A DNA stretch of 64,000 nt. It comes from Ensifer adhaerens (GTDB lineage Bacteria; Pseudomonadota; Alphaproteobacteria; Rhizobiales; Rhizobiaceae). The stretch spans positions 1,426,001-1,490,000 of the forward strand of contig NZ_CP118610.1 of assembly GCF_028993555.1 (NCBI RefSeq), read 5' to 3'. Positions within the stretch are counted from its first letter, which is position 1. Each line of letters begins with the position of its first letter. The translations under genes were made by a program, and so were the position numbers. The notes beneath the pieces are model-generated. The model searched no databases and was not told the DNA's origin. It saw nothing but the letters and a program-made list of their open reading frames with translations. This document shows positions 28,940-42,722 of the stretch, piece after piece.

Positions 28940-29016
<77 letters not shown>

Positions 29017-29266
29017 TCGTAACGCCCGAGGCGGCGTTCTTGATTTCCCAGCGTCTTTTCCCTTCGTCAGGTATCGTCGCGCCGCGCTCATTGAGCTCGG
29101 ACTGCGCGCCCTGCCGGAGAAGCTTGCGCCCCGCGCAAGCGTGTTGCTGAAAAGCCGAATTTATCCGGCCAAAAGTCATTCCGTTTTAGATCATTCTGCG
29201 TTATGGGAAGACGGAATGCTGGTGCCCGTGAATGTTGCCAGCGAAAGTATGGAGCCGTTCGAAACC

Positions 29267-29572
29267 ATGTCCGCAAAGATCTATCGTCCAGCAAAGACCG
29301 CCATGCAGTCTGGCAAGGCCAAGACGAACCTGTGGGTGCTGGAGTTTGATCAGGAAAAGCCGCGCACCATCGACCCGATCATGGGCTACACCAGCTCCGG
29401 CGACATGAAGCAGCAACTGCGGCTAACGTTCGAAAACGCCGAGCAGGCCATTGCCTATGCCGAGCGCAACGGCATCGAGTATCGCGTGATCGCCCCGAAG
29501 GAAGCGACGCGCAAGAGCGTGTCCTATCCGGACAATTTCCGTTTCAACCGGATGCAGCCCTGGACCCACTAG
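29267..29572 (+). CDS. NDUFS4-like (ETC complex I accessory) protein
   Basis: A 101-residue protein matching the bacterial form of the 18-kDa accessory subunit of respiratory complex I. MSAKIYRPAKTAMQSGKAKT at the N-terminus, then WVLEFDQEKPRTIDPIMGYTSS and the C-terminal PDNFRFNRMQPWTH are the conserved stretches. In alphaproteobacteria it associates with NADH:ubiquinone oxidoreductase at the cytoplasmic face. A longer open frame extends upstream through the tRNA-Pro region, so the ATG at 29267, with GGAG upstream, is taken as the start. Confidence 0.9.
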   Translation: MSAKIYRPAKTAMQSGKAKTNLWVLEFDQEKPRTIDPIMGYTSSGDMKQQLRLTFENAEQAIAYAERNGIEYRVIAPKEATRKSVSYPDNFRFNRMQPWTH

Positions 29573-29608
29573 GTCCTCCGGTCGCATTCGTCGGGCGCAG
29601 CCCGGGAC

Positions 29609-29685
29609 GGCCCCTTAGCTCAGTTGGATAGAGCACCTGCCTTCTAAGCAGGTTGTCGCAGGTTCGAATCCTGCAGGGGTCGCCA
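29609..29685 (+). tRNA. tRNA-Arg (UCU), island attachment site
   Basis: A 77-base cloverleaf: acceptor GGCCCCT/AGGGGTC, anticodon stem CCTGC/GCAGG around CTTCTAA giving UCU, T arm GCAGGTTCGAATCCTGC, and encoded CCA. Its last 17 bases are repeated at 37514-37530. Confidence 0.95.
29669..29685 (+). repeat. attL-type direct repeat (3' end of tRNA-Arg)
   Basis: TCCTGCAGGGGTCGCCA, the 3' end of tRNA-Arg(UCU), recurs exactly at 37514-37530 in the same orientation. Downstream of both copies the similarity goes on in weaker form (TATCTGTTTCT at 29699 and 37540, then AGAAATT). Confidence 0.85.
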
Positions 29686-29693
29686 TCAATTTT

Positions 29694-29885
29694 CTAAGTA
29701 TCTGTTTCTAAATCAGAAATTCTGCTCAATCCCTCACCAAGATCAGAGTGAGGGATTAGGATGTTCACGTTCAGTTTCTCCGCACCCGAAACTGCAAGCC
29801 GCTTCTTGTCGGCATTGCGGGTGTAATGGTTAGCCATCGAATCGCTCCGCCACCCGAACCGCGCCTTCAGTTCGCAAGTGGAGAC
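29694..29885 (-). pseudogene. Tyrosine recombinase C-terminal remnant
   Basis: Minus-strand translation gives ELKARFGWRSDSMANHYT then RNADKKRLAVSGAEKL and a stop at 29694, 8 bases from the tRNA. The pattern FGW...YT...A..KRLA..A..KL is the end of phage-type integrases, and the Tyr of HYT is the expected nucleophile. An in-frame stop lies just upstream (near 29887), so only about 63 residues survive. Confidence 0.7.
29728..29757 (-). terminator. Hairpin within the integrase remnant
   Basis: AATCCCTCAC (29728-29737) pairs with GTGAGGGATT (29748-29757), a perfect 10-bp stem. It could have acted as a terminator at the island edge. Confidence 0.4.
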
Positions 29886-29961
29886 TCATACTCTCCATAA
29901 GCCGGTAAACCGGGGGCCGGAGGGGTCTAGCCACCTCTCCGGTTCCCCAGAATGTAGAAAA

Positions 29962-30087
29962 AGCGCTGCGGCGTTCGGCAACTGGTTTGCCGACGTCTGC
30001 GTAGAGGCTGGTGTCGATGGAAGAGCCCACGGCCTTCGCAAGACGCTTGCCCAGGTCCTTGCCGAGAGCGGCAACAGCAGTGCCGAT
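29962..30087 (+). pseudogene. Second tyrosine recombinase fragment, opposite strand
   Basis: The plus strand encodes SAAAFGNWFADVCVEAGV followed by DGRAHGLRKTLAQVLAESG. The HGLRK box II motif, with the catalytic His and Arg, and the preceding FGNWF helix are typical of rhizobial island integrases. Neither the N-terminal arm nor the Tyr region is in frame. Since the neighbouring fragment at 29694 lies on the other strand, the two cannot come from one simple gene without an inversion. Confidence 0.65.
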
Positions 30088-30167
30088 CCGGACTTGGAAG
30101 CTGAGCTTGAGGCTCATGGGTTGCTCCTAGTCCTGCCGAAGCGGGATTCTTCGGTAATCTTGTAAAA

Positions 30168-30206
30168 GTAAAGCCGCCCGATTTGTCACCGGGCGGCTTT
30201 TCCTGT
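30168..30206. terminator. Bidirectional terminator downstream of the Thr-rich protein gene
   Basis: AAGCCGCCCG (30171-30180) pairs with CGGGCGGCTT (30190-30199), flanked by A residues on the left and T residues on the right. It lies 35 bases beyond the stop of the minus-strand gene at 30239. Confidence 0.7.
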
Positions 30207-30238
30207 CTGGGGCGACCACGGTCGCGACACTTGAAAGT

Positions 30239-30571
30239 TTATTGCGCAGGCGCTGTAGTCGAAGGTTGCGTCGTAGACGGCTGAGTAGTCGGGGTCGTTG
30301 TTGATGGCTCAGACGTTGACGGCGCCGTTGTCGACGGCTCGGTAGTTGAAGGCTTCGACGTTGTCGGTGTCGTGGTTGTGGTGGACGGCGCCGTTGTCGT
30401 TGGCTCTGTCGTCGTGGACGGGGTTGTCGACGGCTGCGAGGTTGCTGGCTCAGTCGTGGTCGCCGGAGTTGTCGCAGTTTCTGTGGTCGCTTCCTTCTTC
30501 GGCATCAGGAAGACGACGCCAAGGATCACTACCACGGCAGCAATGATTGCAATGAGGGTATTTCGGCTCAT
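30239..30571 (-). CDS. Membrane-anchored Thr/Ser/Pro-repeat protein
   Basis: A 110-residue product. Residues 5-24 are a single transmembrane anchor (LIAIIAAVVVILGVVFLM), and everything after residue 30 is a low-complexity repeat of Thr, Ser, Pro and Glu in units such as PSTTEPSTTAPST. The tail should be outside the cytoplasmic membrane and disordered. Proteins of this build occur as small rhizobial hypotheticals; no function is known. AAAGGAGTG lies just before the ATG. It has its own terminator at 30168. Confidence 0.75.
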   Translation of the reverse strand: MSRNTLIAIIAAVVVILGVVFLMPKKEATTETATTPATTTEPATSQPSTTPSTTTEPTTTAPSTTTTTPTTSKPSTTEPSTTAPSTSEPSTTTPTTQPSTTQPSTTAPAQ

Positions 30572-30695
30572 GCTTCACTCCTTTTGGATGCATCCGAGGA
30601 GTGAATTCTACCACGCCAACCAAAACCGGAGATGAACAGGCAAGCGGGGCGAGGTCAGTGACATGCGACTCAAGGCCCGCCGTAGCGTGCGACAC

Positions 30696-30821
30696 TCACT
30701 TCTTTTTGAGCGTGCTCTCGCTGTTCTTTACCTGCGAGCCCGGGGCTGGTGCCGTTTTCTCGACCTTGTCCTTCTTCGGCTTGCGCGTCTCTTTGTTGCT
30801 TCGAACCTGACCTTTAGCCAT
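30696..30821 (-). CDS. Very small basic protein (41 residues), hypothetical
   Basis: The frame from the ATG at 30821 gives MAKGQVRSNKETRKPKK, then Lys-rich, Ala/Pro-rich and a terminal KKK. Small basic proteins beginning MAKGQ-R/K-SNKE are, to my memory, conserved in many proteobacteria without a known role. CAGAGGAG seven to ten bases upstream gives a strong start. Divergent from the 41-residue membrane ORF at 30844. Confidence 0.6.
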   Translation of the reverse strand: MAKGQVRSNKETRKPKKDKVEKTAPAPGSQVKNSESTLKKK

Positions 30822-30843
30822 CACCCCTAAACTCCTCTGGTTG

Positions 30844-30969
30844 ATGGACGAGCAATACTGCTTTCAGCCCACTATCCAAGGGTACGCCCAGCCCGCCCGG
30901 TTTGTCACCATCCTCGGCGGCCTTGCTTGGCTCGTCTACTTCATCATCTACCACGTCCAGATCGTCTGA
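30844..30969 (+). CDS. Small single-pass membrane protein (41 residues)
   Basis: The frame starts MDEQYCFQPTIQGYA and continues into the hydrophobic RFVTILGGLAWLVYFIIYHV, one transmembrane segment ending at the C-terminus. The stop overlaps the next ATG (TGATG at 30967-30971), so coupling with a second ORF is likely. No family recognised. Confidence 0.5.
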   Translation: MDEQYCFQPTIQGYAQPARFVTILGGLAWLVYFIIYHVQIV

Positions 30970-31193
30970 TGACCATCATCGACCTGCAGAAGGTAAAGGC
31001 AGACCGCGAGGCGCCCCAGAGTGCCCGTTGTCAGGCGAGATGCGCAGAAAGGCGTGCACACGTAGCTGACGCCAGCGTCGTTTGGCAGCGTACACATGAC
31101 ACTGTCATGTGTTCTTGGTTGTACGTGGCGTTGTCATGGTACTCTTCCGTGACAACATGCTCTGCGCCGCATTCGAGGCATTTCTGCCGGTAA
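30969..31193 (+). pseudogene. ORF with a real-looking N-terminus but disordered rest
   Basis: The start overlaps the previous stop. The first 17 residues (MTIIDLQKVKADREAPQ) look like the start of a known type of small rhizobial hypothetical protein; after that the residues are Cys/Arg/Ser-rich and look non-coding, and an antisense ORF with zinc-ribbon features occupies the same DNA. The likeliest reading is that the gene was cut by a rearrangement at about 31020. Confidence 0.35.
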
Positions 31194-31207
31194 TGTTCAG
31201 TCCGCAA
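31031..31207 (-). CDS. Possible 58-residue zinc-ribbon protein with TTG start
   Basis: The minus-strand frame has QKCLECGAEHVVTEEYHDNA and, 25 residues later, VSCVRCQTTL: two CxxC knuckles as in a zinc ribbon. The only usable start is a TTG at 31207, preceded by GACGGAGAG at good spacing. Upstream of that is an in-frame stop at 31226, so the protein would be complete. It overlaps the plus-strand ORF at 30969; the CxxC spacing favours this one. Confidence 0.45.
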   Translation of the reverse strand: MRTEHYRQKCLECGAEHVVTEEYHDNATYNQEHMTVSCVRCQTTLASATCARLSAHLA

Positions 31208-31554
31208 GCCCGCTCTCCGTCAGTTTCGCTCAGGCATTTCAGACGCGCGGCAACCAATCCCAGCGGCGCTCACGTGAGCGACAGAATCAGACCGGTTTCG
31301 TCAGAATAGAACACTTCCGCAACGGCCTTTGCAGCGCCGGTATCAGATAGTTCCAGATACATGCCATCGCGCTGTACGTACGCCTACTTCGATGGCTTCC
31401 AAGCTCGGTCTCCCTCTGGCTTTACCGCTGATATTGCCAATATCTTCCGTCATCAGTGAAAGGAACCGGCCTCAGTCTCGACGCCGATCGAATGCGTTGC
31501 TGATCCCGCATGCCTAAATAGGGAGCCGGACCTAAGGCCCGGTTCCCCGACGTC
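31208..31554. other. Intergenic stretch with a 30-residue minus-strand ORF
   Basis: About 345 bases with no convincing gene. A minus-strand frame at 31270-31362 reads MYLELSDTGAAKAVAEVFYS and ends soon after; it looks like the N-terminal part of a protein and may be a remnant. A GGAGCCGGACC/GGCCCGGTTCC hairpin is at 31519-31545, downstream of nothing obvious on the plus strand and just after the stop of the minus-strand gene at 31555. Confidence 0.35.
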
Positions 31555-31875
31555 TCAGTTTCTCGAGCTCGACGCGCGCCTTTTCAGCACCACGACCAGT
31601 AAGGCTGCAGCCATAAGGGTACCAAGGGTAGCTCCTACGCTGCCAACGAGCATCAGGGTGTAGAATTCGAAGGGATTTTCGTTGGCCGTCAATATGACGG
31701 CCCCACGCCTGCTGACCTCGCCTGTAATGAGCGCATGAATGACCCCATAGAGCGCCCCAGGGCCGATTGACGCCGCACCGATCGCAATGAGGGTTTTGTG
31801 GAGCCGTCCTCCGTCGAGAAGACGCTCACCAAGCTCTTGGAGTTTATCCAGCCGCCGTTTCGTTGTTTCAGGCAT
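31555..31875 (-). CDS. Hypothetical two-helix membrane protein
   Basis: A 106-residue product with an N-terminal amphipathic helix (KRRLDKLQELGERLLDGG), one hydrophobic segment at residues 27-50 (TLIAIGAASIGPGALYGVIHAL) and another at residues 72-97, then a basic tail. GGGGAAG upstream of the ATG supports the start. No family recognised. It follows the caspase-like gene on the same strand with a 60-base gap. Confidence 0.55.
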   Translation of the reverse strand: MPETTKRRLDKLQELGERLLDGGRLHKTLIAIGAASIGPGALYGVIHALITGEVSRRGAVILTANENPFEFYTLMLVGSVGATLGTLMAAALLVVVLKRRASSSRN

Positions 31876-31935
31876 TCAGAACACTTCCCCGATGTCTCAA
31901 CTTTTGCCCTCAGAAGAGGGTAGAGGTTGCGACGT

Positions 31936-32574
31936 CTAGTCCCGAGTCAGCGCCTCTACCAGCCGTTGCTTGTTGACGAACTCGATAAAGGCTCTCTTCT
32001 GTTCGGCCCCACCATAGAACTGAAAACTGTTGTGACCGGAGGCCGCCCGCATCAGTTCCACACAAGTAGCCGGCAGTTTCAGCTTAAACAGGTTGTGGTA
32101 GAAAACGGTGTAGGCAACCAGAGCGTCGTCCCACGGTATGTTTTCGGTGCTGCCAAGGGTCGCATACAGCGGCTTTCGGTGCTCCTCGGTATACATCGAC
32201 ATCCGAGCAGCCGCAGCACCTCCACACGTCGAGAGTGTTACGAACACTCCCCATTCAAGTCCGTTGTTCAAGGGGGTTAGGATCCCGAGTAGGTATTCCC
32301 AGTCGATCATCGTCCCGTCTGTAAGGCAAATCCCCTGGTCGTTGCCGTGCATGCTGAGGTGGACAATTGGCGTGCCGAGGCGACCGATCGCCTGACGCAA
32401 AGGCGAAGCTTCGTCTGACAAGTCAAATGCTCTGACAAACTGCTCTTCGTTTACCGCCAGAAAGTAATCATGTCGCGTGTTCGATAGCTTGAAGGTCTCA
32501 CATAGTGACCGCCCCTCGGTGCGCCCGTCGGATAGATCGCGCGGACTCGGGGACTCGACGATGTCGAATGGTGG
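31936..32574 (-). pseudogene. Caspase/CHAT-like protein lacking a start codon
   Basis: An open frame of 212 codons runs from a stop at 32577 to the stop at 31936. In it are FDIVESPSPRDLSDGRTEGR, then PIVHLSMHGNDQGICL and GVFVTLSTCGGAAAARM. The His-Gly and Ser-Thr-Cys-Gly pairs at this spacing are the catalytic dyad of caspase-like (clan CD/CHAT) folds, and VAYTVFYHNLF and LMRAASG follow as in related bacterial proteins. No ATG, GTG or TTG occurs in the first 51 codons; the first TTG is at 32421, inside the domain. So the 5' end is missing or an unusual start is used. Confidence 0.6.
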
Positions 32575-33071
32575 CTAGGGGCAGAAATGCTCGTAAGATT
32601 TGGGGGTAGGGTGGACCCCAGAGCGCAGCAGTGCTGGCGGGTCGCGCTCTGGGATCACTAGCGCCAAAGGAATGGCGCTCAACTAGGAATGGCAGCGCCG
32701 ATCGGATTCTGCAACGCGGCTAGGACCTTTGCCGGAGCGCGTAAGACCTAGGTCTGACGTGGTTTCCCCGAGGCTGATTAGCGCTTCAGCTTCCCGACCT
32801 TGATCGTGTTGCGGTCGCTGTTCCGGCATGTCCCGCAGCGGGTGGAAGGTGGGCAACCGAGGCGGTGATCGCTAGTGCCGCATGGTCTCCGAGGCAACCT
32901 CAATGTATCGGCCGATCGACCAGAGCCCTCCCATGTGGGAGGGCCTTTTTCTTCCGGACTGGCCAGGGTTCAACCACCGTGCAACAGAAGATTGCGTCCT
33001 GAGATTGAAATTCTGCTTCAATTGCTTTTTGATAGCAGAGGCGATCATTGCTCCATAGCCTGGAGACTTTA
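32575..33071. other. Intergenic region with two hairpins
   Basis: Nearly 500 bases without a firm gene. There is a CCCAGAGCG/CGCTCTGGG hairpin at 32617-32653. A minus-strand frame ending at about 32780 reads CPPSTRCGTCRNSDRNTI then KVGKLKR; it has clustered Cys residues but no clear start, so it is only a possible gene end. A perfect terminator follows at 32925. Confidence 0.35.
32925..32951 (+). terminator. Strong intrinsic terminator
   Basis: GCCCTCCCA (32925-32933) and TGGGAGGGC (32936-32944), a perfect 9-bp stem with a very short loop, followed by CTTTTTCTT. No plus-strand gene lies directly before it, so it may end a small RNA starting after 32700, or the hairpin may act for leftward transcription. 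Confidence 0.6.
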
Positions 33072-33473
33072 ATGGATATGACTACCCCCAGCGGGCAGCT
33101 TTCTGGCCTGTCCTTCTTGGTGTTCTGGGTGTTGCTGGCGATCCTGCTCTTTAGCGGCGTGCGTCAGGGGTTGAGTGCAGGGCCAAAGGACGATGCTCGG
33201 TCGAGCGCGCAGGATCGTTCTGTTGGACGCATAGATCGGTATCTGTTGGAAAACGACAGAGAGCGTCGAGCCGCGGTGCTGGCTGTCGAGGCCAAAGCCA
33301 GATCCTATTTCGCGCGCCGCATAGGTAAAATCCATCTGGCAGCGCTGGCCTTCTTCGCCGTGACGACATTGCTTCTGACGCTCTGGAATCTGCATGAGGC
33401 CAAGATGCACCGGGCATCTCAAATCCAACTCATTCACCTGCTGCTACGCGATGTGGCCGAGCCCACCGCCTAG
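33072..33473 (+). CDS. Hypothetical protein with two transmembrane helices
   Basis: A 133-residue product with a transmembrane segment at residues 15-32 (LSFLVFWVLLAILLFSGV), a charged middle of about 60 residues with RIDRYLLENDRERRAAVLAVEA, and a second segment at about 92-110 (LAALAFFAVTTLLLTLW). GGAG upstream favours the ATG at 33072 over one 24 bases before. Convergent with the next gene; the two stops are 5 bases apart. No family recognised. Confidence 0.6.
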   Translation: MDMTTPSGQLSGLSFLVFWVLLAILLFSGVRQGLSAGPKDDARSSAQDRSVGRIDRYLLENDRERRAAVLAVEAKARSYFARRIGKIHLAALAFFAVTTLLLTLWNLHEAKMHRASQIQLIHLLLRDVAEPTA

Positions 33474-33478
33474 AGACT

Positions 33479-33796
33479 TCATTCGCCAAGTGTGACGATC
33501 ATCGTCAAAATTGCCAGAAACGACAGGAACGTGACGGCCATCGAGGTGGACCAAGCCCTTCGCAACGATCTAAAGCGATCGTCGACCAAAACCGAAGTTC
33601 CACGGCTGAACTTTCGCCCCATCTTCTCGCCCCGGCTCAACTCCCTTTCGTCCACGGGATTGATCAGCGCTTTCGTCCGCGCCAGGATGACAATGTTGCA
33701 CACCACGCAGCTGATAAACCCGCATAAAAAGGCCGCGCCGGCGCCCCAGAAAGCGATCTGCGCGAGGATGCTGTGATCTTCTGGCCTGAATGCCAC
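33479..33796 (-). CDS. Hypothetical protein with two transmembrane helices
   Basis: A 105-residue product. Hydrophobic segments are at residues 12-40 (AQIAFWGAGAAFLCGFISCV) and 86-103 (MAVTFLSFLAILTMIVTL), with a basic loop between them that includes GEKMGRKFSRG. CTTGAGAGGG precedes the ATG at a usable distance. It pairs in convergent fashion with the gene at 33072 that has the same two-helix build, but I see no sequence relation between the two. Confidence 0.55.
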   Translation of the reverse strand: MAFRPEDHSILAQIAFWGAGAAFLCGFISCVVCNIVILARTKALINPVDERELSRGEKMGRKFSRGTSVLVDDRFRSLRRAWSTSMAVTFLSFLAILTMIVTLGE

Positions 33797-33886
33797 ATTG
33801 CCCTCTCAAGGTTGATCCATGCCAGTCTTGAAATTGAGCCGCGTAGTCAACTCGTGAAGCTGGAGCGGCGGCGCCACCGCCGTGTT

Positions 33887-34117
33887 TTATGGAATGTCGA
33901 TCCCTCTGCGCTGCAATTCTTGCTCTGCAAGATCGGCATATAGCTGCCGCGGCAAAGGTCCCTTCCATGTCAAAGAAGGTCGCGGCGCGTTCGTCTCTTT
34001 GATGTAGATGTTGCGTACTTGTGCATCGGTCGCTTGTCGGAGGAATTGCATAAACTTGTCACGCTCTTGCCGGGTTATGCGAGTGTCCCCTCTAACATGG
34101 GGCAGGTTTCTGCTCAT
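33887..34117 (-). CDS. Hypothetical 76-residue soluble protein
   Basis: The product has a helical start (RITRQERDKFMQFLRQATDA), a central stretch with PRPSLTWKGPLPRQLYADLA, and a C-terminus EQELQRRGIDIP. The charged, helix-favouring composition and regular codon use suggest a real gene. The ATG at 34117 is preceded by weak ribosome-site sequence. No family recognised. Confidence 0.5.
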   Translation of the reverse strand: MSRNLPHVRGDTRITRQERDKFMQFLRQATDAQVRNIYIKETNAPRPSLTWKGPLPRQLYADLAEQELQRRGIDIP

Positions 34118-34634
34118 GCGAGTGTCCGTTCTTCGTTATGATAGGGCGGGGAGGCAACCGTGAGGATTTAAGATCGCACAGCGCACGTTTAAGTCAATGG
34201 TAAAGTAGGCAAACAAAAAAGGCCGGACTGAATCCGACCTTCCAACAACCGGTAGCGGGTGGTTTCTCCGATGAGCCTATTGAAACCCATTAGGGCGTAT
34301 CAAGCTTTGTCGTCGCTTGACGCGGGCCAGACGCTACCGGCAAAAAGCATTATACGCCTCCCATCTCTCATTGCCAAACTCTTTCAACTCGAAAGCCTCC
34401 CTACAGCGGGAAAACGCTCGGGTGCGCCTTTGCCTATGTCTTGATGCAGGCGCCATGCTGGACAGCGGAAATCGGCCTCCTGAGGAGAGGATTGTCGTAG
34501 CGAAGGACGAAGCGGGCCGAACCAAGGGCGTTGATTTCGGACTTCGAAAACTCCCCCGAATTCGGGTTAGTTTTCCCGCGACCGCCCTGATTACCCTCTG
34601 GCTGCAGAGCCCCCGCCGCAGCCCTCTGCCCTAC
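34118..34634. other. Gene-poor stretch inside the island
   Basis: About 515 bases with only short open frames on both strands, none with a good ribosome site or recognisable product. An imperfect AAGGCCGGA/TCCGACCTT hairpin is at about 34219-34242, near the 5' side of the gene at 33887. Confidence 0.4.
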
Positions 34635-34967
34635 TCAGCCACGGATAACCCAAACCCCTAGCACAAGTAAGACAAGTGGCGGGCCCAGCAGCAGCGCACC
34701 GAAAAGCAAGGCTGCCATCTGCACTTCCCTGCCAACTAGAATTCGGCTCCTAATCTCGTCTGGCACGGTAGATGCTTCGCCCACGGATGCGGCTTCCTTT
34801 TCAGCCTTCCAGCCGTCTGTGACCACCGCCCAGCCATGGAGGTAGATGGAGCCCTCATTCGTGCCGGCTCGCCCTCGTCCTTCAACGTCCACATAGAAGG
34901 CCAGTATCAGCACCCAAAGTACTGAGGCGATCAGCCATATTCGAAAGAGGCCACGTCGGATATTCAT
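34635..34967 (-). CDS. Hypothetical two-helix membrane protein
   Basis: A 110-residue product. The N-terminus MNIRRGLFRIWLIASVLWVL and following residues form a first membrane segment; a second is at residues 84-107 (ALLFGALLLGPPLVLLVLGVW). Between them is a soluble loop with GSIYLHGWAVVTDGW. The RRGLFRIW start with a TM helix is a widespread layout of small proteobacterial hypothetical proteins. The ATG at 34967 is preferred to one at 35000, which would add 11 unlike residues. Confidence 0.6.
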   Translation of the reverse strand: MNIRRGLFRIWLIASVLWVLILAFYVDVEGRGRAGTNEGSIYLHGWAVVTDGWKAEKEAASVGEASTVPDEIRSRILVGREVQMAALLFGALLLGPPLVLLVLGVWVIRG

Positions 34968-35080
34968 CTTGCCGCACCACCTAGCAAGCAAGGATATCAC
35001 CGCGCTGGCCCGTCCGCACGCAAAGACCTAAGCGCCTGAATTTTCTCGCACTTGGAGCTGCCCCCAAATTTGGGGAGAAG

Positions 35081-35533
35081 TCAGTACTCTCCACTAGGCT
35101 TAAAGAATACGTGGCCACTAAGGCCGGCGACTTTCCCGTCCTCTGTTCGGTGCCAAGTGAGCCTGGCGTCCGTCGGGAACGCGCACCCTTTTTGGAGAAA
35201 CTGGGCTAGACGAGCGCTCAAGGCGTTTGAACAGGGTGAAACCACCTTGAAGCCCATTGATTGAAGGTCTCGTTCCATTACGTCCGCATCGCTGCCGGCC
35301 GGAAACCGCGTCTGCAAGCGTCTCGTGAGCTCCGGCGAGAAGGCCTGTTTCTTCCCTTCGGAAAGACCGCACCCGGGACTCCATACATTCCCTTCTTCGA
35401 CGGACGATAAATCCAGCAGTAGTGGGGGCAGGGGGCGATCGCACTCCCCGATCAGCGTGACCAGACCGGTAAAGCCGGCAAGGCAGGCAACGCAGGTAGC
35501 GATCAGGCCAAGTGCAGCAGCGGAACGATTCAT
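35081..35533 (-). CDS. Hypothetical exported or membrane-anchored protein
   Basis: A 150-residue product with an N-terminal hydrophobic segment (AALGLIATCVACLAGFTGLVTL) followed by a soluble domain of about 120 residues that has four Cys, at positions that could form two disulfides if it is periplasmic (CDRP, GCGL, PCSN, GCAF). Residues GRLQT.. and DLQSMGFKVVSPC suggest a mixed alpha/beta domain. No family recognised. The gap to the gene at 34635 is about 110 bases. Confidence 0.55.
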   Translation of the reverse strand: MNRSAAALGLIATCVACLAGFTGLVTLIGECDRPLPPLLLDLSSVEEGNVWSPGCGLSEGKKQAFSPELTRRLQTRFPAGSDADVMERDLQSMGFKVVSPCSNALSARLAQFLQKGCAFPTDARLTWHRTEDGKVAGLSGHVFFKPSGEY

Positions 35534-35669
35534 TCATTGCCCCTACGCATTGCAACCAATACGTCGAAGCGTCGCACAGTGCACGTACCAGTCAAGGATT
35601 ATCGTAGCGCCCGATCGGGCTATTGAAAAGGTTACAGATTTCTGTCGCGCTCGTTGCTAATCTAGCGAC

Positions 35670-35834
35670 ATGCGTGGCTTACTGCTCTCAATTGTTGTGC
35701 TGAGTGGCCTCCTGGCGGTCGACTGGATCGCATCCGAGGGGCGCTATAGCAGCGCGGTTTGGCGCGGAGCGAATGAAGAAAGCCAATACGTCCGATATCG
35801 GGTGCAAGATTTGGTCGATAGGATTGGCCTGTAG
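35670..35834 (+). CDS. Small exported or anchored protein (54 residues)
   Basis: The frame gives MRGLLLSIVVLSGLLAVDWI, a signal or anchor helix, and then a polar tail that includes RGANEESQYVRYRVQDLVDR. The regular amino-acid composition supports coding, although the ribosome site is weak. It is convergent with the coiled-coil gene at 35855. No family recognised. Confidence 0.45.
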   Translation: MRGLLLSIVVLSGLLAVDWIASEGRYSSAVWRGANEESQYVRYRVQDLVDRIGL

Positions 35835-35854
35835 TGCGGCGCATCCATGACAAT

Positions 35855-36055
35855 CTATTGGGACAGCAACAAACTGCTTTGGGATTGGCTGCTCTCGATC
35901 TCGAAAATCTCGCGCTTCAGACGCGCAATGTGCTCGTACGAATACTGCGCATCCTCCAACAGCATATAGGCTTGGTCTTCCGCATATTTCGCATGGCGGC
36001 GATGAGTGTCGATCTGCGCCAGCTTTTGTTTGATCCGAGGATCGTCCCTGTGCAT
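35855..36055 (-). CDS. Hypothetical coiled-coil protein (66 residues)
   Basis: The product begins MHRDDPRIKQKLAQIDTHRR and goes on as one long charged helix (YMLLEDAQYSYEHIARLKREIFEI), ending in a Ser/Gln-rich tail. The ATG at 36055 has the perfect AGGAGG site five bases upstream and is chosen over an ATG at 36100. It may be a small oligomeric helical protein; no function known. Confidence 0.6.
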   Translation of the reverse strand: MHRDDPRIKQKLAQIDTHRRHAKYAEDQAYMLLEDAQYSYEHIARLKREIFEIESSQSQSSLLLSQ

Positions 36056-36326
36056 TCCAGCCTCCTGGAAAGCCCCGCCTAAGCTGGGTTTGATCTTCAA
36101 GGCTAAAATAGCAATTGCGGAAATTCAGCGCCAGTTGCTCACGTGAGCTACGCCAAAGGCAGGAGCAATCGGGCGGTATGACCTCTCAGTTACTCCCATT
36201 TCGTTTCTCTCCTCTCGTTTAACCCTTACGGCCAAGACAAGACAATGCATGGCACTGCGATACCTCGATTGGGCGACAAGACGCAAATCCTTGTAACATG
36301 ATAACAATAACGCTTTGGAGCGTATC

Positions 36327-37331
36327 ATGTTCTCTGTGCGTGGGGCCGCATTCATCGCGCTTTGTGTCGCGTCTTACATCCCGATTCCGGTCCATGCCGC
36401 CGAGCCCGTCGGCCAGGCAGTGCAAATCCGGACGGCAGTGAGCGGCGCTCGTGGCCCGATCGCGGTCAAGGACCCGGTCTACAAGGACGAACGGATCTCG
36501 ACATCGAAATCCGGCCTCGGCCAGTTCGTCTTTCAGGATGGCACCAAGCTGGCCGTCGGCTGGGGCTCCTCCGTCGTCATCGACAAGTTCGTCTACGATG
36601 ATCAGAAGTCGGTGAAGAAGCTGACGATCATGGCTGCCAAGGGCACCTTCCGCTGGATCAGCGGCAAGTCCGGGCACTCCGCCTATCAGATCGTCACGCC
36701 GGCCGGCACGATCGGTGTTCGTGGCACCGCCTTCGATTTTTATGTCGGCCGCGACGGCACCACCGCCGTCGTGCTGCTCAGCGGCGCCGCAAGCTTCTGT
36801 GGCGCCGGCGGCTGCCGGCAATTGACACAGCGTTGCGACTGCGTCGTCGCCAAGCCCGGCGGCGGCATCAGCGACCCGGCGCGAGTTAGCCGTGGCACGC
36901 TGAAATCACTTGGCAATGCTCAGGCCCTTCCTTTCCTCTCCGGTGGGCAACGACTGTCGGGAGCGTTGGGCTGGGCGGGGGGTGGTTGCAGCCTTGCGGC
37001 GGCGATCCAAGAGGACCTCGAGCGCCAACCGCAGACTGTGCAACCCCGCGCCGTCGAAGAGCAACCTCCCGAGGAAAAGCCGCAGAAACCCGACAAGAAG
37101 CCAGACAAGCCACACAAGCCGGACAAGAAGCCAGATAAGCCCGACAAAAAGCCAGACAAGCCCGACAAAAAGCCTGAGAAGCCTGCGAAAGAAGAGGGGT
37201 ACCGCAATCGCCACTGGGAGACGAAACACCCAGGCATACGTGGCGAGGATGCCAATCATAAGGATGTCCGCGAACACGCCAACGACCATCAAAATAAGGG
37301 GAACAAAGGAAACAAGCATCATAACGACTGA
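36327..37331 (+). CDS. Exported FecR-domain protein with Lys/Pro/Asp-repeat tail
   Basis: A 334-residue product. A signal peptide of about 24 residues ends in VHA. Residues 30-165 form a FecR domain (RISTSKSGLGQFVFQDGTKL, WGSSVVIDKFV, VTPAGTIGVRGTAFDFYVG). Residues 165-250 contain several Cys (CGAGGCRQLTQRCDC). Residues 255-295 are near-perfect KPDKKPDKP repeats, followed by a His/Lys/Asn-rich tail. FecR proteins usually pass a signal from a TonB receptor to an ECF sigma factor; here there is no membrane helix and no such partner. GGAG eight bases upstream supports the ATG at 36327. It is the last gene before the right att repeat. Confidence 0.8.
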   Translation: MFSVRGAAFIALCVASYIPIPVHAAEPVGQAVQIRTAVSGARGPIAVKDPVYKDERISTSKSGLGQFVFQDGTKLAVGWGSSVVIDKFVYDDQKSVKKLTIMAAKGTFRWISGKSGHSAYQIVTPAGTIGVRGTAFDFYVGRDGTTAVVLLSGAASFCGAGGCRQLTQRCDCVVAKPGGGISDPARVSRGTLKSLGNAQALPFLSGGQRLSGALGWAGGGCSLAAAIQEDLERQPQTVQPRAVEEQPPEEKPQKPDKKPDKPHKPDKKPDKPDKKPDKPDKKPEKPAKEEGYRNRHWETKHPGIRGEDANHKDVREHANDHQNKGNKGNKHHND

Positions 37332-37513
37332 GGTCGCTGCGGGGGGCGATGAATGAACGCAATAGGGGTTACTCACGCACCGTGATCGACCTAGGATGCG
37401 TGGAGCGGTGAGGGACGCGTCTAAAATTTCGCAAATGAATCAAAGGGAATTAATCACCCCTCACTTTTCCCGGTAAGTGTTGATTTCGTTGATGAAATAG
37501 CCGTTTCTAGCAT

Positions 37514-37530
37514 TCCTGCAGGGGTCGCCA
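37514..37530 (+). repeat. attR-type direct repeat
   Basis: TCCTGCAGGGGTCGCCA, identical to the last 17 bases of tRNA-Arg(UCU) at 29669-29685. The rest of the tRNA is absent here, so this is a displaced tRNA end rather than a second gene. Confidence 0.85.
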
Positions 37531-37594
37531 AGTTTTTAACTATCTGTTTCTTCGATAGAAATTGTGGATCGTGCCGTGAGGTACGCAGGGCGAC

Positions 37595-38404
37595 TTAAGT
37601 GCCTCGTGTCAGGGCGTCCACGAACTTGACCACCTCGCTTACTGTGTTGTCATTCCAGATGTCGTTGTGACCGGAGTGTTCGTCGATCCGCATCTGTTTG
37701 GGTTCAGGCGCGATGTGATAGAGCGCCTCGCCCGAGGACAGCGGAATGCTATCGTCCAATCGTCCGTGAATGAACAGCTTCGGTTGCTTTACCGTCGCTA
37801 TCTGGAGGTCGGAACGGAAGGGATCCTTGAGGAGGAGCGCCACCGGCAGGAGTGGATACCGTGCCTCGGCGACCGACAGCACCGACAGATATGGGGAGAT
37901 AAGGATCACGCCGGAAGCTGGTCTTTGTGCCGCGGTGTTCACGGCGATGCCGGTGCCGAGCGAGCGGCCGAGCACAACGATGCCGCGATTGATGCGGGGC
38001 GTCAGCCAGTCAAACGCCGCGATGCCGTCAGTCAGCAAGCCGTCCTCGCTTGGCGAGCCGGTCGATCCCGGATAGCCGCGATAGGAAATCGCGAGCAATC
38101 CGATGCCCCGTGCCGCCAATGCCTGTGCGAGAAACCCATAGTTGTCGAGCCGATCTCCATTTCCAAAAAAGAGCAGGACACCGGGTTTGCCGGGCTTACC
38201 TTGACTATAAAGCCCGTGCAGCGTTTCACCATCCGGCGTTTTGACCGAGACGTTGTCGCCCCAACTTGCCAGGTTCGGTGCGGCCGTGGGCGTGGCCCCG
38301 GGATAGAGCAGGGTGCGCTGCGAGAAATAGACGAGGCCAAGAACAACAAGATAGGTCAGGACCGCTGCAAGCGGAAGGATCAGAAGAAGTTTTGTGGTGC
38401 TCAT
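37595..38404 (-). CDS. Alpha/beta hydrolase, membrane-anchored
   Basis: A 269-residue product with an N-terminal anchor helix (LLLILPLAAVLTYLVVLGLV). The hydrolase fold follows: LLFFGNGDRLDNYGF (oxyanion loop), SYRGYPGSTGSPSEDG, the nucleophile elbow GRSLGTG, the acid in IHGRLDDSIPL, and the catalytic His in EHSGHNDIW. This matches the BAAT/FSH1-like family of small serine hydrolases with a GxSxG elbow. The substrate is unknown. The ATG at 38404 starts just before the anchor; an earlier in-frame ATG is less likely. First gene to the right of the island. Confidence 0.85.
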   Translation of the reverse strand: MSTTKLLLILPLAAVLTYLVVLGLVYFSQRTLLYPGATPTAAPNLASWGDNVSVKTPDGETLHGLYSQGKPGKPGVLLFFGNGDRLDNYGFLAQALAARGIGLLAISYRGYPGSTGSPSEDGLLTDGIAAFDWLTPRINRGIVVLGRSLGTGIAVNTAAQRPASGVILISPYLSVLSVAEARYPLLPVALLLKDPFRSDLQIATVKQPKLFIHGRLDDSIPLSSGEALYHIAPEPKQMRIDEHSGHNDIWNDNTVSEVVKFVDALTRGT

Positions 38405-38862
38405 GGCGCCATTTCCGATCCTAGGAGATAACCGTATTCCATAAAGCATGGATGTCCATAGAAATATTCTGAGAATATTGGGAATTGGCAATGCGTTCTA
38501 GCGTAGACGGCGGATCGTCCGGAGCCGCTGGCGAATATATTCACCAACATCCGGCAGAAATAATGATTGATCCACGCCCGTGCCGATCGGAGACTTCGGC
38601 GCGGAGAGATTGGACGGCGATAAATATAGACAATCCGATCGACAATGTATCCGGTGGTTGGCTGCTGTCCTTCTTATGCGACGGCACGTAAAAAAACGGG
38701 CCGGTGGATGGCTCCAACCGGCCCGTTCCGGCAAAAGGCGGAAAGGGGAACGTCTCTGCGCGGGGCTGCAGCGCCGCGCGTAGGGAGATCGATACGGTCT
38801 GATAATGCCCGAACGCCATTTCCGGAATTGACATTTATCGCTCAAAATTTGACATTTCCCGC
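38405..38862. other. Intergenic region with a terminator-like hairpin
   Basis: About 450 bases. AACGGGCCGGT (38695-38705) pairs with ACCGGCCCGTT (38717-38727). On the minus strand this is followed by TTTTTTT, so it would end a leftward transcript, yet there is no clear gene on that strand between it and the regulator at 38863. Other open frames here look random. Confidence 0.5.
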
Positions 38863-39843
38863 ATGCCTTCCGATGGACGTCCACAATCTGTGATCGAAGT
38901 TTCCGTCGTCATCCTGCCGGAGTCGTCGATCATGTCGCTCGCCTCGGTGCTGGATCCGATGCGTGCCGCCAACCGCATCTCGGGGCGCGATGTTTTTCGC
39001 TGGCGGCTGCTTTCGGCGGATGGAAAGCCTGTGACGTTGACCTGCGGGGTGCCGATCGCGGTCGATGGTAGGTTTGCCCAGCCGCTCGCAGGCGACGCGC
39101 TGCTGGTGATCGGTGGCTTCAATCTCGACCGGCATGTGGGGAAAAAATTCATCGGATTCCTGCAAGAATGCTCCCGGCACTTCGATATCGTCGCCGGCAT
39201 CGAATCAGGCTGCTGGCTGTTGGGGCGTACCGGCCTGCTCAACGGCCGGCGGGCGACTGCCCACTGGGAGGAGCTCGAAGATTTCAGCCAGGCCTTTCCG
39301 GCCCTGACCGTGCTTGGTGACCGATTCGTCGCCGACGGCAAGTTCTGGACATCGGGCGGTGCGTCACCGACCTTCGACATGATGCTCCATTGGATCACGC
39401 AGAGGCTGGGTTCGGCGCTTGCGCTCGATGTCGCCAGCATCTTCGTCTACGACCAGACGCACAGCGCGACCGATGTTCAGCCGTTCGTTTCGCTCGGGCG
39501 CATCGAGACGCGCGATCCGGAACTCGCCGAGGCGATTCGATTGATGGAGCGCACCCTGGAGCGTCCGTTGACAATCGCGGCTTTGACGAAGCGGCTGTCG
39601 GTTTCGCAGCGCAAGCTGGAGTTGCTGTTTGCACGAGGGCTATCGACCAGCCCCGGCGCCTATTATCTCCGCCTTCGCCTCCAGGTCGCACACCGTCTGG
39701 TGCGCGATTCCGGCAGCCCGATCCGCGAGATCGCGCTTCGCTGCGGTTTCGATAGCCTGTCGGCTTTCTCGCGTGCCTACAGCCGCGAATATGGCGTGAG
39801 CCCGCTGAAAATGCGTTCGGCGCGGCGAGCGGCTGTGGTGTGA
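38863..39843 (+). CDS. GlxA-type AraC-family transcriptional regulator with DJ-1/PfpI domain
   Basis: A 326-residue regulator. Residues 8-190 form a class I glutamine-amidotransferase-like (DJ-1/PfpI) ligand domain with DALLVIGGFNLDRH and ESGCWLLGRTGLLNGRRATAHW. Residues 215-320 are a tandem helix-turn-helix AraC domain (TIAALTKRLSVSQRKLELLF, then IREIALRCGFDSLSAFSRAY). This layout is that of GbdR, CdhR and ArgR, which respond to quaternary amines or arginine and often control their catabolism. No target operon is adjacent: the neighbours are unrelated small genes, so the ligand is open. Confidence 0.9.
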   Translation: MPSDGRPQSVIEVSVVILPESSIMSLASVLDPMRAANRISGRDVFRWRLLSADGKPVTLTCGVPIAVDGRFAQPLAGDALLVIGGFNLDRHVGKKFIGFLQECSRHFDIVAGIESGCWLLGRTGLLNGRRATAHWEELEDFSQAFPALTVLGDRFVADGKFWTSGGASPTFDMMLHWITQRLGSALALDVASIFVYDQTHSATDVQPFVSLGRIETRDPELAEAIRLMERTLERPLTIAALTKRLSVSQRKLELLFARGLSTSPGAYYLRLRLQVAHRLVRDSGSPIREIALRCGFDSLSAFSRAYSREYGVSPLKMRSARRAAVV

Positions 39844-39903
39844 GCGGATTTCCCCACGCTGGCGAATGCCGAGCGCGCCTGGACATCAGATCAGGATAGG
39901 AGG

Positions 39904-40167
39904 TCAGTGAACCGTTTGCGGCGGTTCGTCGGTAAACGCCTGGATGCCGTCTCGCTGAACGGTCGCAATGAACTCCTCAAAGGCTTCGCGATCGGTGGGG
40001 AAGGGTTCTTCCCACGTGGTGGAGAAACCTTCCTCATCGATCACCTCGAGGACCCAATCGCGGTTCGAGCCCGCTGGCCGATAAATGCGCAATTCGACAA
40101 CGACGCCGTCGTCACTGAACTGGCCGGAAAATTCTGAATACTCGTACGTCTGCTCTTCGTCAGTCAT
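39904..40167 (-). CDS. Hypothetical acidic protein (87 residues)
   Basis: A soluble, very acidic product with EYSEFSGQFSDDGVVVELRI, then NRDWVLEVIDEEGFSTTWEE and EAFEEFIATVQRDGIQAF. It looks like a small conserved alpha+beta protein of rhizobia. No catalytic motif. The gene is convergent with the AraC regulator and followed by no other minus-strand gene. Confidence 0.7.
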   Translation of the reverse strand: MTDEEQTYEYSEFSGQFSDDGVVVELRIYRPAGSNRDWVLEVIDEEGFSTTWEEPFPTDREAFEEFIATVQRDGIQAFTDEPPQTVH

Positions 40168-40457
40168 TTCTGTAGTGTAACACGCTTGTTTGAAGACGTC
40201 TCATTCTGTTCGGCAGCGACCGCTGCTCGGGCGTTCGACGGTGTCAGCCGTCACCGTCTTGTACTTGGCGGCATCTCCCATTCCGATGGTTCGAAGGCAT
40301 CGAGAGTGCCGGCATGCCTTGGCCTCATCCAAACGGAGCGACCACCCAGGCGCGCTACGCGCGGCGGCTGGGTAGTTGGCGATGGGAAGGCCCTTTGGCG
40401 AGCGTCGAAGCTACGGAGCGTCGAAATTGACACCCCGTCCGCTCCGAATGCGATATG

Positions 40458-40712
40458 TTAGCGGCAGCGTGCCTCGTATCGCCGTCCGTAGCGATCGCGA
40501 TAGATGCAATAGCCTTCGCGCTCTTGCGAACGACCGATCAGGTTGCCTATGACGCCACCGGCAACAGCGCCGATTGCCGCGCCGCCCCAGCTATCGCTCA
40601 CAGCGCCGCCGATGATGGCGCCGGTGCCGGCGCCGATTGCCGTCCCTTTCTCGGTCTGCGTGCAGGACGCAAGCGTACCGATCACCCCAATCGCAATGAC
40701 AAGCTTTTTCAT
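40458..40712 (-). CDS. Small glycine-zipper lipoprotein
   Basis: An 84-residue product. A signal peptide ends in the lipobox LASC at residue 16. Then comes a glycine-zipper segment (GTAIGAGTGAIIGGAVSDSW, GGAAIGAVAGGVIGNLIG), which should insert in or associate with a membrane, and a short basic C-terminus with two Cys (YCIYRDRYGRRYEARC). Similar to the rickettsial 17-kDa antigen/YMGG family. GGGGGA precedes the ATG at 40712; an in-frame upstream codon is less likely. Confidence 0.85.
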   Translation of the reverse strand: MKKLVIAIGVIGTLASCTQTEKGTAIGAGTGAIIGGAVSDSWGGAAIGAVAGGVIGNLIGRSQEREGYCIYRDRYGRRYEARCR

Positions 40713-40956
40713 GCTTTCCCCCTTTGCTGATACAAACCTGCGGGTTTCACCACGTTGCAACCACGGCATGAGAGCTCAGCATCTACGCAACGCGTCAAAT
40801 TGTCGAGAGCGGCTCTTCTCAACAGCGATGTTTGGCGATCACGCAACCGATCGCTCGCGACCGATGGCGCGAAGTCCCCTAACGCGCGTGGGGCAGCTAT
40901 TCATCGCAGGTTCAGGCTGATTCGCCCAAAGTCATCGGCAGATAGGAGGAGTTACG

Positions 40957-41295
40957 ATGAAAAAGCTCTTATCCGCCTTCGCAGCGATTGGCCTGGCTGC
41001 ATCTTTTGCTCTGCCGCTAAGCGCGGCTCCGATTTTCGTGCCGAAACCCGAACAGTCGCAGGCCGTCACTGTCGAACAGGTTAACCACCGCAGCCATCGT
41101 CATTGGCATGCAGATCGCCGGTGGGACCGCCGATGGGATCGGCGGTACGCTTGGCGTTCATGCGGTTACTACGGCAGGTGCTATCCGCGCCAGTACGGGT
41201 ACTACGACGGCTACCGTGATCGCGACTACTATGGTTACGGTGACCAGTACCGCTACCAGCGTCGATCTGGCGTCACGGTCTACTTCGATTTCTAG
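40957..41295 (+). CDS. Small exported Arg/Tyr-rich protein
   Basis: A 112-residue product with a signal peptide of 23 residues ending in LSAA. The mature part is rich in His, Arg, Tyr, Trp and Gly (HRHWHADRRWDRRWDRRYAW, GYYGRCYPRQYGYYDGY) and ends in Phe after VTVYFDF. It resembles the exported BA14K-like rhizobial and brucella proteins; two Cys may pair. GGAGGAG lies just before the start. Function unknown. Confidence 0.8.
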   Translation: MKKLLSAFAAIGLAASFALPLSAAPIFVPKPEQSQAVTVEQVNHRSHRHWHADRRWDRRWDRRYAWRSCGYYGRCYPRQYGYYDGYRDRDYYGYGDQYRYQRRSGVTVYFDF

Positions 41296-41519
41296 TACTG
41301 CGCCCTGACCGACCTCTGAAGCAGGTCGACGAGAGCTGCCGCCTGAGTTCAAGGCCGGCTAGTACGACCTGCTTTTCTGATCACCAAAGTGCTTGCTGTG
41401 ATGCCTGGCAGTTTGCTCTTCACAGGTTCGCGGCGCGCGACTTTTGCAGCGGATGTGTCACGCGGCGACTCACTAAGTTACTGCGCTCTTTAAATCTGTC
41501 GTTGGCTGCTTGGAATTCG

Positions 41520-41595
41520 TGGTGAGCGCGCAGGGATTCGAACCCTGGACCTACTGATTAAAAGTCAGTTGCTCTACCGGCTGAGCTACGCGCTC
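41520..41595 (-). tRNA. tRNA-Lys (UUU)
   Basis: On the minus strand a 76-base cloverleaf: acceptor GAGCGCG/CGCGCTC, anticodon stem ACTGA/TCAGT around CTTTTAA giving UUU, T arm CCAGGGTTCGAATCCCTG, and encoded CCA. Confidence 0.95.
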
Positions 41596-41768
41596 CCTGG
41601 CCGCGGCCGTGAAACCCGGCGGAAGTGGGCGGACATATGCACGCGTGTTTCCTGTCGGTCAACCGAAAAATTGCCGGTTTTGTGAAGAAACGGTGCATGG
41701 CGCAATGATCGCCAAAAGGTGATTGGTATCATCATGATCCTGCGGCTAAGGAATGGCCCAAATGCCGC

Positions 41769-42533: not shown

Positions 42534-42600
42534 GGCATTGCCTCGTATTTCGGAATCACTTTTCGCCTGGACCGGCCTAATCGTCCGGCCGGTTCGTGGG

Positions 42601-42672
42601 CTAGTGCATTCCGCTTCAAGCGGAATCGCTTGAAGCGGAAAGACGTTCTGGAAACAAAGTGCTAGAGCGCCG
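42601..42672 (+). repeat. Rhizobial palindromic intergenic repeat (RIME-like), left half only
   Basis: Begins CTAGTGCATT and includes TTCCGCTTCAAGCGGAA, a perfect palindrome, then a run matching the repeat at 1701 through CAAAGTGCTAGAGCG. The right palindromic half seen at 1770-1806 is missing here. It lies between ccdA and the AEC transporter gene. Confidence 0.7.
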
Positions 42673-42722
42673 TTCGAAGGCTTGGCGTCGGCGTGGGCGA
42701 AGTCAAAGTCGCGAGGGGAAAG

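What the first reader, a model, noticed from the sequence alone, without database searches (positions are those of the whole stretch)
29609..37565. Integrase-less genomic island bounded by repeats of the tRNA-Arg(UCU) 3' end
TCCTGCAGGGGTCGCCA occurs at the end of the tRNA and again at 37514, 7.8 kb apart, in the same orientation. Between them are mostly short, unassigned genes with frequent strand changes; outside them are ordinary chromosomal genes. A weaker shared stretch goes on for about 35 bases past both repeats, so the att core may once have been longer. The absence of an intact integrase suggests an old or helper-dependent element.
Basis: partly seen in the sequence, partly recalled or inferred. 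Interest (0 to 1): 0.8.

Follow-up and report, generated by a model that had tools for sequence, protein, structure and literature searches.

The report
Worn-down prophage at an arginine tRNA
A 7.8-kb stretch inserted at an arginine tRNA gene of an Ensifer-type soil bacterium is most likely the broken-down remains of an old phage, an ordinary kind of scar, though it also carries one copy of a repeated, folded RNA-like element not found in the RNA family library.

Summary
The tRNA-Arg(UCU) 3' end is repeated exactly (17 bp) 7,845 bp downstream. Two of the 15 other genomes of the genus held (one is Ensifer sp. Root278) have a clean empty site joining the tRNA to the alpha/beta-hydrolase gene; none of the 15 has this 7.8 kb there.

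The interpretation needs correction. The island is not integrase-less. Beside the tRNA lie two C-terminal pieces of a tyrosine recombinase, in opposite orientation because about 205 bp (29876-30080) were inverted. An intact 360-aa relative lies 23 bp from the same tRNA gene in another genus of the family, in a 16.4-kb phage-like element bounded by the identical 17-bp core. Several island stretches occur in rhizobial phages or prophages, mostly near or before the terminase genes. Best reading: a decayed prophage relic at a reused tRNA insertion site, a known kind. About 70% of the island could not be traced to phage.

Incidental find: the island carries a ~150-nt element (32611-32759) with 38 covariance-model matches in 12 of 16 genomes of the genus, covarying helices, and no Rfam match. 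Its function is unknown; it may be a new structured RNA.

The parts
29609..29685 (+). tRNA-Arg(TCT), insertion target; intact
   Evidence: ARAGORN; Rfam tRNA
29669..29685 (+). att core copy 1 (attL), TCCTGCAGGGGTCGCCA
29687..29724 (+). extended att similarity beside copy 1 (76% to 37529-37566)
   Evidence: family D4
29712..29882 (-). C-terminal piece of a tyrosine recombinase (WRSD..ANHYTRNADKKRLA), 58% identical to residues 304-360 of the intact G200 integrase; the open frame runs to about 29697
29876..30080 (.). inverted segment (about 205 bp) that splits the recombinase relic; left breakpoint set by the G200 locus, right breakpoint by phage RHph_TM3_3_3 and the G011 prophage
29959..30087 (+). 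second recombinase piece (AHGLRK box), 63% identical to residues 265-307 of the G200 integrase, now in opposite orientation
   Evidence: Pfam PF00589 E 0.053 and PHROG integrase E 0.09 (sub-threshold)
29870..30202 (.). phage regulatory DNA: 29870-29961 and 30081-30163 are contiguous in Rhizobium phage RHph_TM3_3_3 (beside its HTH gene) and, with 30172-30202, lie close together in the G011 prophage
30239..30571 (-). 110-aa Thr-rich protein with an N-terminal hydrophobic stretch; a 72% homologous stretch lies about 1.2 kb before the large terminase gene of an SU10-like prophage in E. sesbaniae
30684..31290 (.). stretch 89% identical to own contig C2:540064-540634, which lies about 0.5 kb from a portal-gene fragment; holds a 41-aa ORF (30696-30821, -; read by eye)
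31467..31934 (.). phage accessory locus: 31520-31557 and 31885-31929 are contiguous in phage phiLM21 before the small terminase gene; here the repeat TTCCCCGAYGTCTCA brackets an extra gene
31555..31875 (-). 106-aa membrane-type protein gene; a homologous gene lies between the antiterminator and terminase genes of the G002 prophage
31936..32571 (-). caspase-like (His/Cys) protein, 5' end lost: no start codon before residue ~51; 54 hits found (one is the window's own), none listed with a Pfam family
32611..32759 (+). copy of a repeated structured element (candidate RNA), model R1 141 bits (a member of the model's own training set)
33072..33473 (+). unassigned membrane-type protein ORF
33479..33796 (-). 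unassigned membrane-type protein ORF
33887..34117 (-). unassigned 76-aa ORF
34155..34510 (.). stretch with relatives elsewhere in the genus; its part 34207-34437 is 94% identical to DNA 0.7 kb from an integrase gene at the E. sesbaniae prophage locus
34635..35000 (-). unassigned 121-aa ORF
35081..35533 (-). unassigned 150-aa ORF
35855..36100 (-). unassigned 81-aa ORF; 35797-36076 is 89% identical to a stretch of G012:C2
36327..37331 (+). FecR-domain protein with a Lys/Pro-rich tail; 36258-37064 is 94% identical to own C1:1818124-1818930 (duplicate of a chromosomal gene)
37514..37530 (+). att core copy 2 (attR)
37529..37566 (+). chromosomal right flank, alike in the empty sites

Best explanation
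The 7.8 kb is the relic of a temperate phage that integrated by a tyrosine recombinase into the 3' end of tRNA-Arg(UCU), rebuilding the tRNA gene and leaving the displaced 17-bp core at 37514 (insertion supported by empty sites and repeats). Most of the phage genome, the N-terminal two thirds of the integrase and all recognisable virion genes were then lost, a ~205-bp inversion split what remained of the integrase, and accessory genes, a duplicated FecR gene and a repeat element stayed or were added (order of events inferred). It can no longer excise by itself (inferred).
For: Empty sites in G008 and G007. Both recombinase pieces match neighbouring parts of one intact 360-aa integrase, which in G200 sits 23 bp from tRNA-Arg(TCT), in an element with D5-type helicase and gpA terminase genes bounded by the identical 17-bp core, 16,358 bp apart. 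Island stretches are contiguous in phages RHph_TM3_3_3 and phiLM21 and occur in prophages of the genus with SU10-type capsid and portal, NusG-like and terminase genes. Island GC is low. 23 of 30 loci of related integrases scanned hold a tRNA gene within about 1.5 kb.
Against: Only about 2.2 of 7.8 kb (28%) was traced to phage or prophage surroundings, and the 34207-34437 part of that only by nearness to an integrase gene. No virion gene remains, and 0 of 6 island proteins tested have a match in the phage collection. The traced pieces resemble at least two phage types (SU10-like and phiLM21-like), so the island may be composite. Of 21 context loci of island stretches (some overlapping), 14 show no ORF like the small phage panel used. 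Each recombinase piece alone is below the Pfam and PHROGs thresholds. None of the 30 related-integrase loci scanned lies at tRNA-Arg(TCT); G200 is the only such case found.
Confidence: 0.76

Rival explanations
1. A non-phage genomic island, mobilised in trans by a helper integrase that recognises the att sites, with small accessory genes as its proper cargo.
For: Direct repeats intact, no intact integrase, mostly unassigned short genes. Other DNA with different cargo occupies the same site in relatives.
Against: It has its own broken integrase of a tRNA-Arg type and carries phage regulatory DNA; several of the stretches traced are phage intergenic regions.
Confidence: 0.12
2. The segment arrived already decayed, by homologous recombination through the conserved flanks from a relative, not by site-specific integration in this lineage.
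For: Advanced decay although the two relatives with the best-matching flanks among those held have empty sites; island stretches have scattered copies in the genus.
Against: No relative with the same island was found; held genomes are one per species, so this is weakly tested.
Confidence: 0.18
3. The island is ancestral and was lost precisely in G007 and G008.
For: Recombination between the 17-bp repeats would also leave a clean site.
Against: 0 of 15 congeners have the island there; losses would be needed in several lineages, and G012 has different DNA at the site.
Confidence: 0.05
4. A phage satellite remnant rather than a prophage remnant, since the G200 relative is only 16.4 kb and has integrase, helicase-primase, terminase, tail-fibre-like and lysis-like ORFs without recognised capsid genes.
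For: Size and gene list of the G200 element (roles of its late ORFs read by eye, not by a search).
Against: The window's phage stretches match full-length phages and virion-gene prophages.
Confidence: 0.08

Closest known systems
   Same: Related integrase (58-63% over the two pieces), same tRNA gene, same 17-bp core, integrase 3' end facing the tRNA
   Different: 16.4 kb, intact integrase, helicase and terminase genes kept; the window has none of these intact
phiLM21 and RHph_TM3_3_3, phages of rhizobia
   Same: Short stretches near or before the terminase genes, 85-96% identical
   Different: The phiLM21 integrase is of another type (no match to the window pieces); no virion genes in the window
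tRNA-integrated phage-related sequences and islands of Sinorhizobium meliloti (PMC11476347, PMC12429752; passages seen)
   Same: Direct repeats at tRNA genes, integrases, many incomplete prophages
   Different: The hot spots named there are tRNA-Thr(GGU), -Asn(GUU), -Lys(CUU); in the passages seen tRNA-Arg(UCU) appears only in the list of tRNA genes

Membership tests
tRNA-targeted integrated element | Direct repeats of the tRNA 3' end on both sides | tested here: met
tRNA-targeted integrated element | Empty site in relatives | tested here: met
   2 of 15 congeners
tRNA-targeted integrated element | Integrase gene at one end | tested here: met
   relic only, split and truncated
tRNA-targeted integrated element | Excision to a circular form | not testable with these tools
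   needs PCR
Prophage (relic) | Phage-specific DNA inside the att sites | tested here: met
   non-coding stretches and one accessory gene
Prophage (relic) | Virion or terminase genes, whole or broken | tested here: not met
   none found among the ORFs scanned and no match of 13 phiLM21/TM3 proteins from around the antiterminator and terminase genes to the island; so 'relic', not 'prophage'
Integrative and conjugative element | Relaxase and conjugation genes | tested here: not met
   no such family among the 10 ORFs scanned
Phage satellite (PICI/P4-like) | Satellite replication and packaging-redirecting genes | tested here: inconclusive
   none among the ORFs scanned with Pfam and PHROGs; no dedicated satellite models were used
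Caspase-like (clan CD) peptidase, ORF 31936-32571 | Catalytic His-Gly and Cys | tested here: met
   H75-G76 and C116 invariant in the window ORF and 25 of its 54 hits; that these are catalytic is recalled, and Pfam gives no caspase-type hit
Rfam-described RNA, element 32611-32759 | Match to a covariance model in Rfam 15 | tested here: not met
   in 29000-43000 at E <= 1 only the two tRNA genes and three sub-threshold matches elsewhere

The most novel reading that the evidence does not exclude
The island carries a copy of an undescribed structured RNA family of the Ensifer/Sinorhizobium genus: ~150 nt, two covarying helices, conserved AGGACCUUUG and GGACYUARGUCC motifs, up to nine copies per genome, one class next to a gene resembling cpdR, spread partly by mobile DNA such as this relic.
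Probability: 0.45. Interest if true: 0.5.

Novelty: new member of a known kind. Interest (0 to 1): 0.34.

Why it matters
It documents tRNA-Arg(UCU) as a repeatedly used insertion site in this genus, ties a broken integrase to an intact one with the same core, and shows how little of a prophage can remain while its att sites stay readable. The structured element inside it, if transcribed, would be a new RNA family that can be tested in laboratory strains.

Tried and rejected
Tried without result: six island proteins against the phage collection (no match); near search of the plasmid collection (2 records, 4-5% of the island each); PADLOC scan of 7 island ORFs (only weak hits of the Thr-rich ORF to PD-T4-6, E 2.7e-4 and 7.9e-3, which I put down to low complexity); Rfam (nothing for the island beyond the tRNA); paper searches on rhizobial intergenic repeats, RNAs and tRNA islands (listings; passages of four papers read). 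What was read says that rhizobial repeats such as RIMEs, Sm-repeats and A/B/C palindromes exist (PMC2573895, PMC2873474, passages), but their sequences were not compared with the element here, so an overlap with a named repeat is not excluded. The phiLM21 integrase as parent was rejected. Considered and not settled: whether 32863-32925 is the 3' end of a small gene (read by eye in L089).

Errors of mine: one helix of the typed structure was shifted by a column, so its figures for that helix are void; one search repeats the count on 32 sequences with the predicted structure. In one search the G004 integrase translation was out of frame and its row was not used. In one search the G011 region (L053) lay on the wrong side of the tRNA; one search fetched the right side, and one search compared all 15 congener stretches with the island. 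On rechecking I lowered the phage-traced share from 30% to 28% and the main confidence from 0.78 to 0.76.
Full report
CHECK OF THE OBSERVATION. The 17-mer TCCTGCAGGGGTCGCCA ends tRNA-Arg(TCT) at 29685 and recurs at 37514-37530 in the same orientation; there is no third match in the window with up to 3 mismatches, and shuffled sequence gives 0.26 matches on average at that tolerance. The weaker similarity beyond both copies is 76% over 38 bases (29687-29724 against 37529-37566), shifted by 3 bases. The stretch between is 56.9% GC against 59.5-63.8% in 82 flanking windows of the same length.

WHERE IT COMES FROM. 

EMPTY SITES. The relatives search covered 61 genomes, 16 of them of this genus, the window's own included. 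In G008 the left flank matches to 29709 and the right flank from 37514, overlapping by 38 bases; G007 is the same. In the alignment the empty sites run from the tRNA through one core into the window's right flank. Of 15 congeners, 2 have this empty site. The island was compared with about 20 kb at the site in all 15 (9.4 kb for G005): none has it. G001 shares only the recombinase relic there (29687-29875 and 30025-30078); G001, G006 and G010 have copies of the repeat element described below, further downstream.

REUSED SITE. A second copy of the core (up to 2 mismatches) in those stretches occurs in 3 of 16 genomes: the window (7,845 bp apart), G004 (15,965 bp) and G013 (1,221 bp). G004 has a 465-aa integrase ORF near its second copy (Pfam PF00589 E 5e-18). 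G012 has a 245-aa recombinase fragment beside the tRNA (PF00589 E 2e-6) and G010 a 41-aa piece of the same type. So different elements have used this tRNA.

THE BROKEN RECOMBINASE. Beside the tRNA are two coding pieces: 29712-29882 on the minus strand and 29959-30087 on the plus strand. They match residues 304-360 (58%) and 265-307 (63%) of one intact protein, a 360-aa integrase of G200, another genus of the family. The plus-strand piece alone scores below threshold for Pfam and PHROGs integrases (E 0.053 and 0.09) and the other gets no hit, so the case rests on the G200 comparison. G200 was one of 2 of 247 genomes of the family sample, the window's own being the other, that matched the minus-strand piece at E <= 1e-8. 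In G200 the integrase gene ends 23 bp from tRNA-Arg(TCT), and the same 17-bp core recurs at C5:133019, 16,358 bp from the copy at 149377. That element has D5_N/DUF5906 and gpA terminase genes; further ORFs look to me like tail-fibre and lysis genes, read by eye. In the window, segment 29876-30080 is inverted: G200 and G001 set the left breakpoint, phage RHph_TM3_3_3 and the G011 prophage set the right one. The N-terminal two thirds of the gene are missing. Related integrases (47 of 297 genomes of the order, E <= 1e-40) are often tRNA-associated: 23 of 30 loci scanned hold a tRNA gene within about 1.5 kb, of many kinds; none of these 30 is at tRNA-Arg(TCT).

PHAGE DNA IN THE ISLAND. (a) 29870-29961 and 30081-30163 are contiguous in RHph_TM3_3_3 (85-86%), beside its HTH gene and tRNA-Met, and in a G011 prophage with SU10-type capsid, portal and terminase genes. 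(b) The Thr-rich ORF 30239-30571 has a 72% relative about 1.2 kb before the large terminase gene of an E. sesbaniae prophage whose terminase and portal ORFs are about 90% identical to the G011 prophage. (c) 30684-31290 is 89% identical to a stretch of the own genome about 0.5 kb from a portal-gene fragment. (d) 31520-31557 and 31885-31929 are contiguous in phiLM21, just before the small terminase gene (92-96%); in the window a 15-bp repeat brackets the extra 106-aa gene, whose relative lies between the NusG-like and terminase genes of the G002 prophage. (e) 34207-34437 is 94% identical to DNA 0.7 kb from an integrase gene at the E. sesbaniae locus, which is weaker evidence. Together these cover 2,226 of 7,845 bp, 28%.

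WHAT IS NOT PHAGE-LIKE. 0 of 6 island proteins searched have a phage match, and none of 13 proteins from around the antiterminator and terminase genes of the two phages matches the island. Of 21 loci that hold relatives of island stretches (some overlap each other), 7 show at least one ORF like the small phage panel, and two of these show virion genes (L232, L235). The FecR gene is a duplicate of a chromosomal gene (94%). The ORF 31936-32571 belongs to an unnamed family (54 hits including the window's own) with an invariant His-Gly and Cys in the window ORF and 25 hits aligned, which I read as caspase-like from memory; the window copy has lost its start.

CONCLUSION ON THE FINDING. Supported by calls: insertion at the tRNA, a broken tRNA-Arg-type integrase, phage-derived stretches. 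Inferred: that one prophage brought most of it, the order of decay, and that it can no longer move. It is a new example of a known kind. S. meliloti papers describe incomplete prophages and islands at tRNA genes (PMC11476347, PMC12429752; passages seen, not whole texts); the hot spots named in the passages seen are Thr(GGU), Asn(GUU) and Lys(CUU) tRNA genes.

THE STRUCTURED ELEMENT. Window 32611-32759 belongs to a repeated intergenic element. A covariance model from 15 copies gives 38 matches at E <= 1e-6 in 12 of 16 genomes of the genus, 9 of them in the own genome (the 15 training copies are among those expected to match), and matches in 5 of 199 genomes of the family sample, three of this genus and two of one other genus, at weak E-values of 8e-7 and 3e-6. 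A search of 30 fetched sources gave 38 matches at E <= 0.001; I realigned 32 with MAFFT, leaving out the three weakest, two short ones (L265, L269) and one truncated one (L087:3069-3185). RNAalifold predicts 21 pairs, 10 with changes on both sides. In the count, 92.9% of cells pair (86.7% in shuffles), 48 cells carry changes on both sides against 19.8 in shuffles (0 of 500 as high), and sliding the partners drops pairing to 27-46%. The structure was derived from these same sequences, and one class of related copies supplies many of the changes, so this is support, not proof. On the 15 copies alone covariation was weak. In 4 of 12 loci looked at, an ORF that I read as cpdR lies nearby (the name is recalled). 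Rfam 15 has no match there. Transcription was not tested.

Noticed in passing
window 32611-32759; loci L243-L274: Repeated ~150-nt intergenic element with covarying helices, 38 matches in 12 of 16 genomes of the genus, no Rfam match.
   Followed up: partly
window 31936-32571: Family of unnamed caspase-like proteins (invariant His-Gly and Cys) with 54 database hits, none listed with a Pfam family; the window copy is 5'-truncated close to where the conserved surroundings of the repeat element begin.
   Followed up: partly
window 36258-37064: FecR-domain gene has two further copies in the own genome (94% and 80% identical); how it reached the island is not known.
   Followed up: no
window 31543-31899: A 15-bp repeat TTCCCCGAYGTCTCA brackets a 106-aa gene at a site that is continuous in phiLM21, suggesting cassette exchange at phage accessory loci.
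   Followed up: partly
L048 (G004): A ~16-kb element with an integrase ORF at the same tRNA carries large ORFs that look helicase-like or nuclease-like (read by eye); possibly defence cargo.
   Followed up: no
window 35540-35601: About 62 bp recur in several genomes of the genus (query 5841-5902); nature unknown.
   Followed up: no
L086 (own contig C2:1096500-1103500): Four copies of the structured element within 2.5 kb, interspersed with short ORFs.
   Followed up: partly
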